Origin: Acidobacteriota bacterium
GTDB taxonomy: Bacteria > Acidobacteriota > Thermoanaerobaculia > Multivoradales > Multivoraceae
Assembly (NCBI GenBank): GCA_003388555.1
Contig: QQVD01000034.1
Coordinates: forward strand, 62,001 to 126,000
Direction: 5' to 3'
Length of the DNA: 64,000 bases
Part shown: positions 5,693 to 52,014 of the stretch, one piece after another
How the letters are laid out: each line of letters opens with the position of its first letter
Position numbering within the stretch: position 1 is the first letter of the stretch
The notes under the pieces: model-generated
What the model saw: only the letters and a program-made list of their open reading frames with translations
Database searches by the model: none
What the model was told of the DNA's origin: nothing
Made by a program: the position numbers and the translations under genes

Positions 5693-7612
5693 ATGCGGAG
5701 GGTGTGGGGCGCGCAGCGAGGAGACCGGGGCGGCGGAGGCCAGGCCCGCCTCGGCCGCGACGAGCTGACGCGCCTGGTCGGCATCCTGCGACTCGCCTTC
5801 TCCGAAGTCCGGGTCGGCGCCTCGCGCGAGGACGCCGTCGCCGAGCTCGATCTGATCTCTCGCCGGCCCGGAGTGCTGCCGGCGCGATCGCCGGCCGATC
5901 CCCTCGACGACGCCCGGCTCGATGCGCTGGCCGACCGCCTCGTCGAGATGGTGGCGGGGCTGGGCGACCCGCACACCCGGCTGACCCTCGCCGCCGCCGG
6001 GGCCGTCGGTGCCCTGGCTCTGCCGTTCCGGGTCGACCGCGACGAGGCAGGAGCGCTGCGCTGCATCGCGGCGACGAGCGAGACGTGGCTCGACGCCGCG
6101 CCGCCACCGGGCGTCCGCCTCACCCACTGGAACGGCGTCGCCGTCGAGCGCGTCGTGGCGGAGCTGGCGCTGCGCGGTTGCGGCGGCGAGCGCGCCGCTC
6201 TCCACCGCCTCACCCGTCGAACCCGGGCCGAGGGCGCTCCTCCGCGCGAGGACTGGGTCTGCGTGACCTACCGCGACGCAGCGGGTGGAGTGGGAGAGTG
6301 GAGAGGCGCCTGGACGGCCGGTCCAGCGCCGGCGGGGACCGGCGCGGCCAGGGGGGCTGCTGCCGCGATGCGCACACCGCCGGGCGACGCCGGATCCGAG
6401 CCGGAGCTCCGGCGCCGGGGATCCTGCGCCGGATTCGAGCCGATCGCGCGCGGCGCCGGATGGACCCTCTGGCGATGCAGCGAGACGCCGGGATGGATCG
6501 TCGCCCGCCTGGCGCGCATCGAGGACGGCGGCGCCACCGGCCGTCTCGCCGCGACAGTGCGCCAGCTCGCGGCTGCGGCCGTCGTGCTCGACCTGCGCGG
6601 CAACCCGGGCGGCGGTGTTGCCTCACTCGAGCCGCTGCTCGACCTGTTCGAGGGCCGTGCTGGCGACGCCGCGCCGGCGCCACGTCCCGCCTTCCAGTTC
6701 CGCGACACGGCGCTGCTGCGCCGGCTGCTGGTGGCCCGGCCCGGTTGGCGCGCCTGGGCCGAGGACGGCGGGCAGGGTCATCTCGCGGCGCTCCCCCTCG
6801 ATGGTGAGTCGGAGCCGCAGAGTCGTCGCGGTAGTCGGAGCCGTCAGAACGGGTCGGCTGAGGGCCGTCGGCCGCGGCTCGCCGCCATCCTGGTCGACGC
6901 GTGCACCTGGAGCGCCGCCGAGATCCTCGCCGCCATCCTGCGCCGGCACACCGGGGCGCCGGTGGTCGGACCGATCGTTCGCACCGCGGGGGCGACCGCC
7001 AACGTCTGGGCGCATCCCACCCTGCAGGACCTGGCACCGAACTGGATCGAGAGCCTCGATGCCGCCGCTGAGTCGTCGGCCCTGCCGCGGGCGCTGGCGT
7101 GCTGGGCGCGGCGTCTCGGCGGCGGCGAGGCGCGCGAGCTGGAGCCGGGACGACGCTGGGTGATCGCACGGCGCGCCGCTCCGCCGGTGCTCGCCGAGTG
7201 GGAGTGCGAGCGACACCGGCAGACGGCGCGAGCGGCGCGGCCGGGTGCGCTGGTGCTGTTCGATCGTGCGCGCCCGGTGTGGCCGCACCTGCCGGGACGC
7301 TGTGGTCTCCAGTTCGGAGTGCGGCGCGCGGTGCTGCCGGACGCCGGCGGCTGGCACCCGTTGGGTGCGGTGCCGGTCGATCTCGTGGTCTCGCAGCGGG
7401 ACGCGGCCGACCGTGCGGAGCTCTGGCGCTGGTCGGTCGACCAACTGGCGGCCGAACAGACCGGGAAGCACCCCAACGCTCTTCACAGTGCCCGACGATC
7501 TCGGCGTGCCGACGAAGGGTCGCGCACGCAACGCCCCGGACGCTCGATGCGGCCGGTTCCACGTAGACCGACGGGCGCCTCACGTCCGTCTTCCAGGGAG
7601 ACACTGAGATGA
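5693..7612 (+). CDS. S41 family peptidase (tail-specific protease-like)
   Basis: A 639-residue protein with the S41 (C-terminal processing peptidase) core. Asp300 opens DLRGNPGGG, the family's typical strand and oxyanion region. ACTWSAAEILAAIL carries the expected nucleophile Ser407 and the conserved Glu410, followed by GAPVVGPIVRTAG. The ATG at 5693 is preceded by GGGAGGGAGG. No signal peptide or PDZ domain is evident, and Arg/Gly/Pro-rich loops interrupt the fold near 215-250 and 365-390. The last 60 or so residues after DQLAAEQTG are Arg/Ser-rich and unlike a folded domain. The stop overlaps the next start (ATGA). Specificity and cell location are unknown. Confidence 0.75.
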   Translation: MRRVWGAQRGDRGGGGQARLGRDELTRLVGILRLAFSEVRVGASREDAVAELDLISRRPGVLPARSPADPLDDARLDALADRLVEMVAGLGDPHTRLTLAAAGAVGALALPFRVDRDEAGALRCIAATSETWLDAAPPPGVRLTHWNGVAVERVVAELALRGCGGERAALHRLTRRTRAEGAPPREDWVCVTYRDAAGGVGEWRGAWTAGPAPAGTGAARGAAAAMRTPPGDAGSEPELRRRGSCAGFEPIARGAGWTLWRCSETPGWIVARLARIEDGGATGRLAATVRQLAAAAVVLDLRGNPGGGVASLEPLLDLFEGRAGDAAPAPRPAFQFRDTALLRRLLVARPGWRAWAEDGGQGHLAALPLDGESEPQSRRGSRSRQNGSAEGRRPRLAAILVDACTWSAAEILAAILRRHTGAPVVGPIVRTAGATANVWAHPTLQDLAPNWIESLDAAAESSALPRALACWARRLGGGEARELEPGRRWVIARRAAPPVLAEWECERHRQTARAARPGALVLFDRARPVWPHLPGRCGLQFGVRRAVLPDAGGWHPLGAVPVDLVVSQRDAADRAELWRWSVDQLAAEQTGKHPNALHSARRSRRADEGSRTQRPGRSMRPVPRRPTGASRPSSRETLR

Positions 7613-31046: not shown

Positions 31047-32135
31047 ATGGGATTCAGCTGCGGCATCGTCGGCCTGCCCAACGTCGGCAAGTCGACCCTC
31101 TTCAACGCCCTCACCCGATCCGAGATCGCGGCCGAGAACTACCCCTTCTGCACCATCGAGCCGTCGACCGGCGTGGTGCCGGTGCCCGACCCGCGCCTCG
31201 ACGCGCTGGCGGCGATCGCCAAGCCCGAGAAGGTGGTTCCGGCGATCATGGAGTTCGTCGACATCGCCGGCCTGGTCAAGGGCGCCTCGCAGGGCGAGGG
31301 GCTGGGCAATCAGTTCCTCGCCAACATCCGTGAGGTGCAGGCGATCGCCCACGTCGTGCGCTGCTTCGAGGACGAGAACGTCACCCACGTCGCCAGCCGC
31401 GTCGACCCGCGCAGCGACATCGAGACCATCGACACCGAGTTGGTCCTGGCCGACCTGCAGACGGTGGAGAAGACTCTCCAGCGGGTGCAGCGCGCCGCCA
31501 AGGGAGGCGACAAGGAGGCGCAGCAGCAGCTGGCGCTGCTCGAGCGGCTACAGCCGCACCTCGACGCCTTGCGCCCGGCCCGCACCCTGCCCACCGACGA
31601 CCGCGAGCGCCGGCTCCTGCGCACCTTCCAGCTGTTGACGGTCAAACCGACGCTGTACGTCGCCAACGTCGCCGAGGACGGCTTCGAGGACAACCCGCAC
31701 CTCGACGCGGTGCGCCAGCACGCCGAGGCCGAAGGCGCCGAGGTCGTGGCGCTGTGCAACCAGCTCGAGGCCGAGCTGGCCGAGCTCGACGACGCCGGCC
31801 AGGCCGAGATGCTGGCCGGGCTCGGCTTCGAGGAGCCCGGGCTGCACCAGGTGATCCGCGCCGGCTACCGCCTGCTCGGTCTGCACAACTACTTCACCGC
31901 CGGCCCCAAGGAGGTGCGCGCCTGGACCATCCCGGTCGGTGCCACCGCGCCGCAGGCCGCCGGTGTCATCCACACCGACTTCCAGCGCGGCTTCATCCGC
32001 GCCGAGGTCATCGCCTACGACGACTACGTCGCGCTCGGCGAGCAGGGCGCCAAGGAAGCCGGAAAGCGCCGCTCCGAAGGCAAGGACTACGTGGTGCGCG
32101 ACGGCGACGTGGTGCACTTCCTGTTCAACGTCTAG
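31047..32135 (+). CDS. ychF: Redox-regulated ATPase YchF
   Basis: 362 residues, the normal length of this Obg-family P-loop ATPase that associates with ribosomes and responds to oxidative stress. Visible are G1 [12 protein letters not shown] near residue 8, [19 protein letters not shown], the G3 region [20 protein letters not shown], and the C-terminal TGS domain ([18 protein letters not shown], then [19 protein letters not shown]) ending in VHFLFNV. The ATG at 31047 matches the universal N-terminus ([15 protein letters not shown]); upstream open frame is non-coding. The stop lies three bases before a large repeat element. Confidence 0.98.
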
Positions 32136-32138
32136 CGG

Positions 32139-32600
32139 TCAGGGGGACGAGGGAAAAGGGACAAGGGACAAGGGAAAAGTAGGGAACGGTGAAAGGGGTC
32201 AGGGGTCAGGGGATAGGGGTCAGGGGATAGGGAGAAGGGACAAGGGAAAGGGAAAAGGGGAAAAGGGACAAGGGAGAAGGGACAAGGGAAAAGGGAAGAG
32301 GGAGAAGGGAAGAGGGAGAAGGGAAGAGGGAGAAGGGAAGAGGGAAGGCGGAAGGAAGAGGGAAGAAGGAAGGCGGAAGGAAGAGGGAAGAAGGAAGGCA
32401 GGAGGACAGGCAGGAGGAGCACGGGTGCGGGTGTAGGAGTCAGGAAGGCCCCCAACCCCCAAACCCTGACCCCTTCCCAGTTCCCTACTCTGCCCCGTTT
32501 CCCGTTTCCCGTTTCCCGTTTCCCGTTCCCTACTTTTCCCTTTTCCCTTTTCCCTCGTCCCCTGACCCCCAACCCCTGACCCCTAGCCCCCAACCCCGCC
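32139..32600. repeat. Low-complexity G/A-rich element with inverted arms
   Basis: The space between ychF and the convergent CHAT gene is filled by GGGAAAAGGG, GGGGTCAG and related words. The ends are inverted copies: GGGAAAAGTAGGGAACGG at 32172-32189 is the exact complement of 32523-32540, and GACGAGGGAAAAGG at 32146-32159 pairs with bases near 32546-32559, so the whole can fold into one long hairpin. Inside are three 14-base units (32293-32334), 2.3 units of 25 bases (32343-32399) and four CCCGTTT units (32494-32521). The strand asymmetry is almost complete (purine left, pyrimidine right). It resembles the short tandem repetitive sequences of some cyanobacteria only in general style. Confidence 0.85.
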
Positions 32601-35469
32601 GCCGGCCGACGCCGACCAGCACAGCGACCGCGGCGAGCCCGCCGAGCGCTACCATCAGCGCGACGGGCCCCGGCAGGCCGGGCTCGGTGCGCGGCGCCAG
32701 GCGCAGGGTGGGATCGCCGAGCAGGACGAAGCCGCCCCAGGCTTCGGACGGGAGCCCGCGTTGGCGCGCCTCGCGCTGTGCCTCGGCCAGTGCCTCGGCT
32801 ACGGGCTCGCCGCGGGCGGCGGAGCGGTAGAAGGCGGCGATCAGCTCCCGCGCGTGGTCGTCGCGCAGCGGCCAGCGGGTGGCGAGCACGGTGCGGCTGC
32901 CGGCGCGGAAGAAGCTGCGCGCCAGGCTGAGCACGCCTTCGCCGCGCAGCTGCCGCCCCGCCGCCGTGTCGCAGGCGGAGAGCACCACCAGCGATCCGGC
33001 GAGCGGCAGCGCCGCGATCTCCCGCGACTGGAGCAGCCCGTCCTCGTCCTCCGAGCCCGCCGCCAGCACGACGCTGGAGCGGGCCGGCTCGCGCTCGTCG
33101 ACGATGGCGTGGGCGGCGAGATGGAGCAGCTCGACGCGCTCGCCGTCGAGCAGTGCCCGGGACAGCCGCGCCTCGCTGGCCTCGACTCCGCTGAGCACCG
33201 CGCCGCGGCCGAGGGTGGAGCGGGACTCGCGCAGCTCGCGCCTCGCCCATGGCAGGCGGGGGACGTTTGCGGCGAGGGCGAAGAGGCCGGCATCGGCGCC
33301 GGCCTGAGGGGAACTGGCTCCGTCCGCCTGCTCCGGGCTGCCGACGAGCAGGACGCTGCCTGCACCCGGCCCGGCACCTGTATCCGGTTCGCCCTGCTGG
33401 CGCAGCCGTGACCAGATCGTCGCCGAGGGCACCAGGGCCAGGCGCCGGAACGGGCCGCCGCCGTCCGCCTCGGGGAGGAGCAGGGTGTCGATCGGCAGCC
33501 CGTGCAGCACGCCGTCGGCGGCCACGAGGAGCGTGTCGACACCGCTCGGCAGACGGGAGAGCACCGGGTCGAGGAGGCGGCGTCGCAGCGCCGCCGCAAT
33601 GGCTGGACTCCAGGTGGCGCCGCGACGGAACATGCCGCGGTACAGGCGCACCGCGGGCTCGAGCTCGGTGCGTTCCGGGATCGGCTCGACACCGAAGGAG
33701 TCGCGGGTCAGATAGAAGACCCAGGAGCCGCTGCTGGGATCGCCGTAGAGGTCGCGGCGGAGCCCGACGACGAAGGAGAGCAGCGCCTCGCCGGGAGCCA
33801 GGGAGGCCTGGATCTCGGCCAGCGAGCTGGCCCTCGCGTCGGGCGCGGCGGCGCTCTCGAGGGCGGATCGCAGCTCCGCCTCCTCGAGCTCGAGCTGGGC
33901 GAGATCGGCGTGCAGTCGCTGCCGTGAGGCGGCGTCGAGCGAGGGATCGAGGAGCCGACGCTGCACGCCGACGATGCGCGCCTCGAGGTCCTCCAGCGCC
34001 GGCGACAGCTGGGCGCGACTGCGGCCCGAGGCTTCGAGCTGCTCGACCAGCACCTGGGCGCGCCGTTGCTCGGCCAGATCGAAAGCCGCCTGGAGCTGGC
34101 CGTCGTCGACCAGCCGTCCGACGACGTAGAGCGCCTCCTCGAGCCAGACGCCCGCCATCTCGGCCCGCAGCAGCCCCTGCTGCTGGCGCTGCACGGATTC
34201 GAGGATCGACAGCGCCTCCAGCGCCCCGCTCGCCGCGGGCGCTTCGTCGAGGGCGTCGAAGACCACGTGCACCACGGCGCGCGCGGCCCACATCTCCGCG
34301 GTCGGATCGGCCTCGCGTTGCGCGACGCGCAGGGTGTTCTCGGCCAGCTCGAGCGCCTCGTGCGGCGCTTCCCGGCGCAGCAGCAACGCTCTCGTCCACC
34401 GGCACTGCGCCGAGAGCTCCTGCGGCTGCCGCTCGGCGAGCTCGACACAGGCGTCGGCGTGGGCGGCGGCACGCTGCTGGTCGAGGTTGCGCCAGAGCTC
34501 CGCCAGGGTGCGGTGGAAGTAGACGGCGATGCGCAGGTCCTGCTGCTCGAGCGCCTGCGCCAGCCCCCTCTCGGCGCGCTCGATCAGATCGACTCGCGCC
34601 TGCTGGTCGGGACGCTGCTCGAGCTCGGTGAGCTCGAGGTTCACCAGGTTGTATTCGATGGTCGGCAGATCGTGCAGCAGCTCCTCGTTCTGCGCCAGAA
34701 GCCGCCATCGCTGGTAGGCGTCGCGCGCGTCCTCGGTGCGCTCGAGCCGGAACGAGATGGTCGCCAGCAGGTCGAGCACCCACCGACGCAGCAGCACCGG
34801 CCCGTCTGGAAAGGCCGCCTGTTCCGCCCGCAGCACGGCGCGCAGGGCGGGAGCGAGAGCGGAGACGTCGTCGAGCTGATGCTGCGCCTCGATCAGCGAG
34901 GCTCGGATGCGTGCCTCGGCGTGACCGGACCTCTCGGCGACGGTGCGCGCCTCCTCGACGACCCGGCGTGCTTCGTCGCCGCGGCCGGCCGCGCGCAGCA
35001 GCAGCCGGCGGTTGGTCAAGGCGATGACGCGGCCGAGGTCGGCCTCGGGGTGGGCGCTGGCGGCGAAGCGTTCGCTGGCCTCGGCGTAGAGCGCGAGTGC
35101 ACGAGGCGGATCGCCGAAGGCCAGGTGGCCCCGGACCAGTGTCGGCCAGGCCTCGGGGGCGCCCGGCTCGTGTCGTTGCAGCTCCGCGTCGGCCAGCTCG
35201 ACCAGGTGCGGCTCGGTGGCCCGCATCCACAGGCAGCGGTAGCCGGAGTACGCTGCCGGATCGCTGGCGATCTGTTGCCGGCAGTCGGCGAACGGATCCG
35301 CCTCCTGGCCGACGGCTGGTGCCGGGACGAGCACGGTCAGAGCGGCCAGTGCGACCAGGACCAGTGCGATCAGGACCAGTGGGCTCAGGACCCCGAGGAC
35401 GGGACGCCGCTGCCGGGCCGCGCACGTCCTGCGCCGCCTGGCGGCAGGTCGCTGGGACGACACCGACAC
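32530..35469 (-). CDS. CHAT-domain caspase-like protease with TPR-like region
   Basis: 979 residues. A membrane anchor or signal lies at the N-terminus (VLSPLVLIALVLVALAALTVLV, about 25-46). A long helical TPR-like region spans about 60-560. The C-terminal CHAT domain (about 600-915) has the catalytic pair His787 in LHLAAHA and Cys833 in LSACDT, then GEGVLSLARSFFRAGSRTV and GGFVLLGDPTLRL. CHAT proteases are related to separase and caspases and cleave protein partners. A second hydrophobic helix near 930-950 precedes a Gly/Lys-rich tail encoded by the adjoining repeat. GTG start. It is last in a run of sigma factor, anti-sigma-like and secreted-protein genes, suggesting joint control (inference). 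Confidence 0.9.
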   Translation of the reverse strand: MSVSSQRPAARRRRTCAARQRRPVLGVLSPLVLIALVLVALAALTVLVPAPAVGQEADPFADCRQQIASDPAAYSGYRCLWMRATEPHLVELADAELQRHEPGAPEAWPTLVRGHLAFGDPPRALALYAEASERFAASAHPEADLGRVIALTNRRLLLRAAGRGDEARRVVEEARTVAERSGHAEARIRASLIEAQHQLDDVSALAPALRAVLRAEQAAFPDGPVLLRRWVLDLLATISFRLERTEDARDAYQRWRLLAQNEELLHDLPTIEYNLVNLELTELEQRPDQQARVDLIERAERGLAQALEQQDLRIAVYFHRTLAELWRNLDQQRAAAHADACVELAERQPQELSAQCRWTRALLLRREAPHEALELAENTLRVAQREADPTAEMWAARAVVHVVFDALDEAPAASGALEALSILESVQRQQQGLLRAEMAGVWLEEALYVVGRLVDDGQLQAAFDLAEQRRAQVLVEQLEASGRSRAQLSPALEDLEARIVGVQRRLLDPSLDAASRQRLHADLAQLELEEAELRSALESAAAPDARASSLAEIQASLAPGEALLSFVVGLRRDLYGDPSSGSWVFYLTRDSFGVEPIPERTELEPAVRLYRGMFRRGATWSPAIAAALRRRLLDPVLSRLPSGVDTLLVAADGVLHGLPIDTLLLPEADGGGPFRRLALVPSATIWSRLRQQGEPDTGAGPGAGSVLLVGSPEQADGASSPQAGADAGLFALAANVPRLPWARRELRESRSTLGRGAVLSGVEASEARLSRALLDGERVELLHLAAHAIVDEREPARSSVVLAAGSEDEDGLLQSREIAALPLAGSLVVLSACDTAAGRQLRGEGVLSLARSFFRAGSRTVLATRWPLRDDHARELIAAFYRSAARGEPVAEALAEAQREARQRGLPSEAWGGFVLLGDPTLRLAPRTEPGLPGPVALMVALGGLAAVAVLVGVGRRRGWGLGVRGWGSGDEGKGKREK

Positions 35470-50457: not shown

Positions 50458-52014
50458 TTGGCGCGACTCAGCCTCTTCTCGGCGCGGTTCCTGAAGCTCA
50501 GCACCGCCATGGTGCTGACCACCGGGCTGATCGCCTTCGAGGCGCTCTCGGTGGTCGCCGCTCTCGGCGAGATCGGTGTCGACCTGGGATCGGTGCGCGG
50601 CCTCCCGTGGGTGGTGACCAGCTTCCTGCTCGCCTCGGGGCTGGCGGTGGCGGCGACGGGATCTCTGGTCGACCGGGTGGGCACGCGGGTCTCGTTCCGC
50701 TGGGCGGCGCTGGTGTTCGTGCTCTCCAGCGGTCTGTGCGGCGCCAGCCAGTCGATCGTGGTGCTGGTCGGCTCGCGGCTGCTGCAGGGGGCCGCCTCGG
50801 GCGCGTTCATGGCGGTGGCTGGCGCCGCCGCCGGCCTCGGCTACCCCTCGGCTCTGCGCAGTCGCGTCTATGCGATGAACGCCACGGTCTGGGGCGTGTT
50901 GGCGTTCGCCGGCCCGGCGCTCGGTGGCCTGTTGCTCGCCACGCTCGGGTGGCGCTGGATCTTCTGGGTCAACGTGCCGCTGGCGACGTTCGCGCTCGTG
51001 CTCGGCTGGAACGCCTTCCCCGAGCGCCCTGTCGGCCACGGTGTCGGCCACGGTGTCGGCCACGGTGTCGGCCACGGTGTCGGTCACGATGCCGGCTACG
51101 AACGCGGGACCTCCGCCAACGCGCGTGGGGACGAGGAGGTCGGGAGTGTCTTCGACCTGCGTGGGTCAGTGCTGCTGGCGATCGCCTTTACCGCCGCGGT
51201 CGTCGGGCTCTCGTCCCTCGCCGGCCGTGCCCTCGGCGCCGCGGCGCCGCTGGTGGTCGCGGCGGTGGCGGCGGGGCTGTACGTGCGGCACGCCCGCGCC
51301 AGGCGCGGGGCGGTCCTCGCCTGGCGCTTCTTCGGCCGGGATCCGTACGCCGCGCTCGCCATCGCCGCCGGCGGGGTGATGGCGGCCGGCGTCGCGGTCG
51401 AGAACTACCTTCCCCTCTACTCGCAGGCGGCGCGGGGCGTGGCGGTGGAGTGGGCGGCGTGGACGGTGATCTTCCTCACCCTCGGCTGGACGACTGCGGC
51501 CAACGTGGCGAGCCGTCTGTACCACCGCTGGAACGAGATCAGGGTGATCGCGGCCGGAGCGGCGGTGATGCCCCTGACGCTCGTCGGCGGCTGGATCTCG
51601 GTGCGTGTCGAGGCGCCCCTGCCCACGGTGCTCGGGCTCTTCTACGTGCTCGGTCTTGGCATCGGTGCGGTGACCAACGCCGCCCTGACCCTGGTCCAGG
51701 ACGCCGCCGACGCGAGCGAGGTGGGCCGTGCGACGAGCGCCCACCAGTTCGTGCGCAACGTGGCGGTGACCCTGGGCACCGCCGCCGGCGGCGCGGCGCT
51801 GGTGGGGCACGGGGTCGAGGCGGCGCCCGAGGCGGCCCTTGCCGCCGCCAGCGTCGAGGCCCTCGCCGCGCCGATCGCGCGGGGATTCGCCGCGGCGCAT
51901 CTCGCCGCGCTGCCCTTCGCCCTGCTCGGAGTCTGGGGGGCCGTGCGCCTGCGCTCATCGGGCCGTGCCCGGGAGGCCGCGACGTCGGCGAGCCGCGACG
52001 CGCGCGCGGGGTGA
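50458..52014 (+). CDS. MFS transporter (DHA2-like, 14 helices)
   Basis: 518 residues with about 14 hydrophobic helices. The MFS signature GSLVDRVGTRVSFRW lies in the helix 2-3 loop, GSRLLQGAASGAFMAVAGA is helix 4, and AFAGPALGGLLLATLGWRWIFWVNVPLA is typical of drug/proton antiporters. A TTG at 50458 after GGGGAACCG is the most likely start, since ATG 50509 would remove the cytoplasmic arm before helix 1. The central loop carries a Gly-His repeat, described separately. Export of a small organic compound is the family inference; the substrate is unknown. It ends 34 bases before a convergent DUF1648 gene. Confidence 0.88.
   Translation: MARLSLFSARFLKLSTAMVLTTGLIAFEALSVVAALGEIGVDLGSVRGLPWVVTSFLLASGLAVAATGSLVDRVGTRVSFRWAALVFVLSSGLCGASQSIVVLVGSRLLQGAASGAFMAVAGAAAGLGYPSALRSRVYAMNATVWGVLAFAGPALGGLLLATLGWRWIFWVNVPLATFALVLGWNAFPERPVGHGVGHGVGHGVGHGVGHDAGYERGTSANARGDEEVGSVFDLRGSVLLAIAFTAAVVGLSSLAGRALGAAAPLVVAAVAAGLYVRHARARRGAVLAWRFFGRDPYAALAIAAGGVMAAGVAVENYLPLYSQAARGVAVEWAAWTVIFLTLGWTTAANVASRLYHRWNEIRVIAAGAAVMPLTLVGGWISVRVEAPLPTVLGLFYVLGLGIGAVTNAALTLVQDAADASEVGRATSAHQFVRNVAVTLGTAAGGAALVGHGVEAAPEAALAAASVEALAAPIARGFAAAHLAALPFALLGVWGAVRLRSSGRAREAATSASRDARAG
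51031..51090 (+). repeat. Five 12-bp units coding a Gly-His loop
   Basis: GTCGGCCACGGT is repeated four times exactly from 51031, followed by a degenerate fifth copy ending at 51090. In the MFS frame it reads VGHGVGHGVGHG and onward, giving five histidines in the central cytoplasmic loop. Unit length keeps the frame, so copy number can vary without breaking the gene. Confidence 0.9.

What the first reader, a model, noticed from the sequence alone, without database searches (positions are those of the whole stretch)
32139..32600. Large purine-pyrimidine inverted repeat between convergent genes
About 460 bases made of G/A words on one side and C/T words on the other, with arms such as GGGAAAAGTAGGGAACGG exactly complementary over 350 bases apart, and three internal tandem arrays. 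It could form a long hairpin, triplex or G-quadruplexes and may be a bidirectional terminator, a recombination hot spot or a non-coding mobile repeat.
Basis: partly seen in the sequence, partly recalled or inferred. Interest (0 to 1): 0.62.

Follow-up and report, generated by a model that had tools for sequence, protein, structure and literature searches.

The report
G-rich seven-base repeats flanking genes
The odd purine/pyrimidine block between two genes that face each other is two opposed stretches of a seven-base G-rich repeat that this bacterium's genome carries in dozens of places at gene edges, a known kind of bacterial repeat with an unusually strict orientation and no proven job.

Summary
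Window 32142-32597 holds a G-rich heptad array (GGGNNNN; 90% purine to 32448) and an opposed C-rich array (32449-32597), filling the gap between ychF (stop 32133-32135) and a convergent CHAT-domain gene whose frame runs 68 nt into the second array. It is not a one-off: 51 array clusters lie in the 1.90 Mb of this 6.8-Mb genome that I read. They are almost absent from 17 relatives scanned, and their composite word pattern occurs in 2 of 396 genomes of the phylum (Acidobacteriota, inferred).

The family is ordered by gene edges, not by hairpins. The 5' end of the G strand faces the gene at 50 of 53 gene borders within 60 nt, and 19 of 19 two-array clusters run G then C. Arms of one cluster pair no better than arms swapped between clusters, so the "large inverted repeat" is two separate arrays. 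It contains no intrinsic terminator.

The kind is known: G-rich heptamers of Xanthomonas and Nostoc (Rehm 2015), with the same placement. New are the lineage, the mixture of words and the near-absolute polarity. I read it as slippage-grown minisatellites kept at gene borders. A transcription-valve role is possible but untested.

The parts
31047..32135 (+). ychF (YchF-type ATPase/GTPase); stop codon TAG at 32133-32135
   Evidence: Pfam YchF-GTPase_C 2.4e-37 and MMR_HSR1; ORF
32142..32346 (+). G-rich heptad array (GGGAAAA, GGGACAA, GGGGTCA, GGGGATA, GGGAAGA, GGGAGAA); its head (5' end of the G strand) lies 7-9 nt after the ychF stop
   Evidence: cluster C3:94144
32334..32406 (+). 25-nt purine tandem repeat (AGGGAAGAAGGAAGGCGGAAGGAAG), 2.9 copies, at the tail of the G-rich side
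32407..32448 (.). Spacer between the two arrays, still G-rich
32449..32597 (-). Opposed heptad array, G-rich on the - strand; its head faces and overlaps the 3' end of the CHAT gene
32172..32189 (+). Irregular word GGGAAAAGTAGGGAACGG, copy 1; also at C37:62119-62136 of the same genome
   Evidence: exactly 3 places genome-wide
32523..32540 (-). Irregular word GGGAAAAGTAGGGAACGG, copy 2
32530..35469 (-). CHAT-domain gene (979 aa); its reading frame runs 68 nt into the C-rich array, so the array supplies the last residues and the stop codon
   Evidence: ORF; Pfam CHAT 1.1e-49 over residues 624-919

Best explanation
The block is two separate members of a genome-wide family of G-rich heptad minisatellites, each anchored at the 3' end of one of two convergent genes. 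SHOWN: heptad period, many copies, intergenic placement, excess between convergent genes, and the rule that the G strand runs 5' to 3' away from the gene edge. INFERRED: arrays arise and grow by slippage or unequal exchange of G-rich heptads in DNA free of selection just beyond stop codons (less often upstream of starts), with occasional copying between loci. They are tolerated there and sometimes replace the gene's own stop codon. Any function is a by-product of composition: a transcript leaving a gene is G-rich, and any transcription coming in towards a gene is C-rich and G-poor, so arrays may help insulate gene ends. The hairpin between opposed arrays is incidental.
For: Family: 136 BLAST matches in the own genome, with 40 of 117 candidate places scored; 737 + 689 31-mer hits; 51 clusters in 1.90 Mb, none wholly inside a predicted gene. 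TRF period spectrum of 1.54 Mb: 30 arrays of period 7 against 4 of period 6 and 5 of period 8. Polarity: head faces stop 37, head faces start 13, tail faces stop 3, tail faces start 0; single-orientation clusters 22 of 24; mixed clusters 19 of 19 G then C. Heads abut stops (median 6 nt; 27 of 41 within 15 nt; 13 of 41 at or before the predicted gene end). Own arms are not matched to each other. Rehm 2015 reports the same placement in three genomes.
Against: Simple slippage does not explain why the G strand points away from the gene. The irregular 18-mer shared with C37 argues for copying between loci, at least here. Slippage and length change could not be seen, because no congener or strain was among the relatives held. 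The polarity does not clearly hold in relatives: the head is nearer its gene in 2 of 4 heptad arrays of G002 and G026.
Confidence: 0.68

Rival explanations
1. A dedicated bidirectional terminator: the opposed arrays pair in the transcript of either gene into a long hairpin that ends transcription.
For: Both strands fold better than shuffles: -214.7 kcal/mol, z -3.6, and -205.8, z -5.3. Array clusters are in excess between convergent genes (9 of 18 against 77 of 636). In Xanthomonas, transcripts start or stop at quadruplex-type heptads more often than at control repeats (Rehm 2015, section read).
Against: Own arms pair no better than arms swapped among 19 clusters (for the window, rank 10 of 19 for its G arm and 4 of 19 for its C arm). 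No U tract and no intrinsic-terminator pattern. 32 of 51 clusters have a single orientation and cannot form such a hairpin.
Confidence: 0.12
2. A transposable or copied repeat: arrays are inserted as ready-made cassettes, for example by a Y1 (REP-type) transposase.
For: An irregular 18-mer at three places genome-wide; a recurrent gcggaa lead before arrays (seen, not tested statistically); three Y1_Tnp genes at C21:100-109 kb.
Against: Spacers between arrays show no common core; the spacer matches found involve short tandem repeats or a palindrome in 4 of 19. Sharing of 30-mers between loci equals an order-7 null (122 against mean 118). Block order is at most weakly fixed: first block 26 to 22, p = 0.67; mean position 32 to 16, p = 0.03. 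No reverse transcriptase (PF00078) in the genome.
Confidence: 0.15
3. Assembly or binning artefact, or sequence from another organism.
For: Several contig ends lie in arrays (C1 end, C4 end, C24 end, C27, C21, C61 and C66 starts).
Against: 51 clusters are spread over many contigs with predicted genes beside them; the genome is rated 98.76% complete and 1.07% contaminated (the column heads). Breaks at repeats are what short-read assembly would give.
Confidence: 0.03

Closest known systems
G-rich heptameric repeats GGGNATC of Xanthomonas and GGGGA(C/T)T of Nostoc (Rehm et al. 2015, PMC4692102; abstract, sections 15 and 16 and found passages read)
   Same: GGG-led heptads dispersed genome-wide, mostly intergenic; G strand on the sense strand within 50 bp after stops or antisense within 50 bp before starts; opposed ('convergent') pairs; rare between divergent ORFs; function unknown to the authors
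   Different: Here many words are mixed in one array instead of one consensus; runs are longer (median 7 tracts among runs of 4 or more, against a preference for 4 units there); and I count borders by which end of the G strand faces the gene (50 of 53)
STRR heptamers of filamentous cyanobacteria (PMC2670836, passages read; the primary papers of the 1990s are recalled, not read)
   Same: 7-bp tandem repeats between genes, some able to form hairpins, proposed to affect transcript stability or ends
   Different: Other phylum and words; I compared no cyanobacterial sequence here
TAACTGA heptamer direct repeats of Beggiatoaceae (PMC4679880; search listing and start of abstract only)
   Same: Abundant intergenic 7-base direct repeats in one lineage
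   Different: Not G-rich; the start of the abstract suggests a post-transcriptional role

Membership tests
G-rich heptameric repeats (Rehm 2015) | Tandem 7-nt units led by GGG, at many places in one genome | tested here: met
G-rich heptameric repeats (Rehm 2015) | Over-represented in non-coding DNA | tested here: met
   0 of 51 clusters wholly inside a predicted gene (own gene finder)
G-rich heptameric repeats (Rehm 2015) | G strand sense within 50 bp of a stop, or antisense close to a start | tested here: met
   Head faces stop 37 and start 13, tail faces stop 3 and start 0, within 60 nt
G-rich heptameric repeats (Rehm 2015) | One consensus unit per genome (GGGNATC or GGGGAYT) | tested here: not met
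   GGGGTCA, GGGGTTG, GGGAAAA, GGGACAA, GGGAAGA, GGGACGA all common and mixed
G-rich heptameric repeats (Rehm 2015) | Preference for four units | tested here: inconclusive
   Four tracts is the commonest run (10 of 50) but the median is 7 and runs reach 21; runs under 4 were not counted
G-rich heptameric repeats (Rehm 2015) | Opposed pairs close together | tested here: met
   19 of 51 clusters, all G then C
G-rich heptameric repeats (Rehm 2015) | Quadruplex formation | not testable with these tools
   Needs CD or melting assays
Intrinsic transcription terminator | Short GC-rich hairpin followed by a T tract | tested here: not met
   0 found in 31500-33200
Composite mobile element (MITE-like) | Common core between inverted ends, at several loci | tested here: not met
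   19 spacers compared by BLASTN: no common core

The most novel reading that the evidence does not exclude
The arrays are one-way transcription valves at gene borders. Because the G strand runs away from the gene, RNA polymerase leaving a gene makes G-rich RNA, while polymerase entering a gene, antisense from a convergent neighbour or by read-through from upstream, makes RNA with 57% C and 7% G. That resembles the C-rich, G-poor sites where Rho loads (recalled). One rule would explain both placements (sense after stops, antisense before starts) here and in Xanthomonas and Nostoc, where no function was found. Support: rho is present; the 10 most C/G-skewed 78-nt windows in 1.54 Mb all lie in arrays, and stops without arrays show no such skew.
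Probability: 0.12. Interest if true: 0.7.

Novelty: new variant of a known kind. Interest (0 to 1): 0.4.

Why it matters
It extends the G-rich heptad repeats to a further lineage and sharpens their placement into a rule about polarity towards gene edges that covers both published placements. The rule makes a testable prediction: C-rich RNA only for transcription entering a gene. If selection keeps the polarity, it would point to a repeat-based insulator of gene borders. If not, it would be a clean case of directional growth of minisatellites in bacteria.

Tried and rejected
Hairpin as the selected unit: rejected for the family by arm similarity and duplex energy. Common cassette with ordered blocks (GGGGTYR, then GGGAMRA): looked striking by eye, but only weakly supported. 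Copying between loci from shared 30-mers: not above an order-7 null; only the irregular 18-mer stands. Telomerase-like or retro-writing origin: no RVT_1 in the genome. Rfam: only sub-threshold matches to eukaryotic families. Extension of the polarity rule to other genomes: head nearer in 2 of 4 arrays of G002 and G026; among the six loci the ORF context was clear in too few to count. Viral contigs: 4 contigs hold GGGACAA arrays, not pursued beyond ORF positions. Shared site in a relative: of 30 ychF loci (own and 29 of the 40 relatives searched), only own and G002 have a heptad array in the 600 nt after the gene; its word (GGGCAGT) and strand differ, so common origin is unproven. One search read 14 of those loci on the wrong strand (so did for some); one search repeated the 14.

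Full report
OBSERVATION. The block between the two genes is as described: 32142-32448 is 90% purine and 32449-32597 is 81% pyrimidine, built mostly of heptads GGGNNNN and their complement. The named 18-mer lies at 32172-32189 and, reversed, at 32523-32540. The left gene is ychF (stop 32133-32135) and the right gene, on the other strand, encodes a CHAT-domain protein. The array begins 7-9 nt after the ychF stop, and the CHAT frame ends at 32530, 68 nt inside the second array. Three order-3 Markov simulations of 1.54 Mb gave no comparable 31-mer, against 314 observed.

THE FAMILY. The window lies in a 6.80-Mb assembly of 74 contigs, 98.76% complete. BLAST with the block gave 136 matches there (only 40 of 117 candidate places were scored), and the bare pattern (GGGN4)4GGG gave 737 + 689 overlapping hits. 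I read 1.54 Mb without regard to arrays (C1-C4 complete, most of C5 and C6) and 0.36 Mb chosen mainly for matches (C21 1-20000 and the 20 stretches). With a home-made gene finder (coding-frame Markov model), 51 clusters were found: 20 in the unselected part, which would scale to about 90 in the genome. Two of the 51 (C24 end, C27 start) share at least 108 nt and may be one array cut by the assembly. Contig ends often lie in arrays, so the true number may be higher.

PLACEMENT. No cluster lies wholly inside a predicted gene. In the unselected part, 9 of 18 clusters with both neighbours known lie between convergent genes, against 77 of 636 intergenic gaps of at least 60 nt (odds ratio 7.3, p = 0.00014); depletion between divergent genes is not significant (p = 0.18). 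I call the 5' end of the G strand the head. Within 60 nt of a cluster edge there are 53 gene borders: head faces stop 37, head faces start 13, tail faces stop 3, tail faces start 0. Among 24 single-orientation clusters with both neighbours known, the head is nearer its gene in 22 (p = 3.6e-5). All 19 mixed clusters run G then C. Heads abut stops closely: 27 of 41 within 15 nt, and 13 of 41 at or before the predicted gene end. Without arrays, the 80 nt after stops show no G-C skew (-0.01 in 316 codirectional and +0.01 in 92 convergent cases); with arrays it is about +0.6 (14 convergent, 5 codirectional).

IS IT A HAIRPIN? Either transcript of the window block folds better than shuffles. But across the 19 mixed clusters, the two arms of one cluster are no more alike than arms of different clusters (p = 0.86) and pair no better (p = 0.80). 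There is no intrinsic-terminator pattern. The pairing follows from two members of one family lying tail to tail. Here, in addition, an irregular 18-mer is shared by both arms and by one other place, C37:62119-62136, which suggests some copying between arrays.

ORIGIN. Period 7 dominates the tandem repeats of the genome (30 arrays, against 4 and 5 for periods 6 and 8). The family is local: of 17 relatives scanned for the bare pattern, 7 have none and the other 10 have 2-55 overlapping hits per genome, among those listed mostly G runs, low-complexity stretches or other words. A stricter composite pattern was found in 2 of 396 genomes of the phylum, own included, and in 6 stretches of the 84,980-species collection, two of them named Acidobacteria (records of the own genome may be left out there). 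The hit in G183 (same phylum as the window) and that in 'Acidobacteria bacterium ACE_ACI2' have the same letters and position and the same second array 433 nt further on, from which I infer phylum Acidobacteriota; no tool stated it. No reverse transcriptase was found and three Y1 transposase genes were, with nothing linking them to arrays. In the related genus of G002, ychF is also followed, 13 nt after its stop, by a heptad array between convergent genes, but with the word GGGCAGT on the other strand and a penicillin-amidase gene as neighbour; none of the other 28 relatives' ychF loci examined has a heptad array there.

KNOWN KIND. Rehm et al. 2015 (PMC4692102) described GGGNATC repeats in Xanthomonas and GGGGA(C/T)T in Nostoc: intergenic, sense after stops or antisense before starts, with opposed pairs, transcripts that start or stop at them more often than at controls, and no function found. 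The placement here is the same; the mixture of words, longer runs and different lineage are not. My searches of the paper library for heptad repeats listed no report for Acidobacteria; that library holds open-licence papers only.

MECHANISM. I favour tolerated minisatellites that grow beyond gene ends, with the polarity unexplained by simple slippage. The boldest reading is a transcription valve: reading towards a gene gives C-rich, G-poor RNA (57% C, 7% G over 70 arms), and the 10 most skewed 78-nt windows of 1.54 Mb all lie in arrays; rho is present. Against it, arrays facing starts sit at a median of 59 nt, so some would lie in the gene's own leader; relatives do without such arrays; and no expression data were available.

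Noticed in passing
Own genome C1:61272-61472, C3:251165-251371, C13:137207-137488, C13:146690-146915: Four of the 19 spacers between opposed arrays share a palindrome of the type CCTCCCCCTGAAGGGGGAGG with similar flanks, resembling REP elements (resemblance recalled, not tested).
   Followed up: no
Own genome C21:100285-109111: Three Y1_Tnp (REP-type transposase family) genes within 9 kb.
   Followed up: no
Own genome C2:176864-176944: A GGCAGAA heptad array of 11.9 copies beside a GGG-type array: the heptad tendency is not limited to GGG words.
   Followed up: no
L215 (G002:C55) 7457-7494: In a related genus the gene after which the window array lies (ychF) also has a heptad array 13 nt after its stop, with another word and strand: a hot spot, inheritance or chance.
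   Followed up: partly
L180, L182, L183: Flammeovirgaceae, Planctomycetota and Selenomonadaceae MAG contigs carry arrays of the same words (GGGACGA, GGGACAA, GGGGTTA, GGGGTCA); they were found with a pattern made from this genome, so the sharing of words is not independent evidence.
   Followed up: partly
window 51030-51100: A 12-nt tandem repeat TGTCGGCCACGG of 5.9 copies (period divisible by 3, possibly coding).
   Followed up: no
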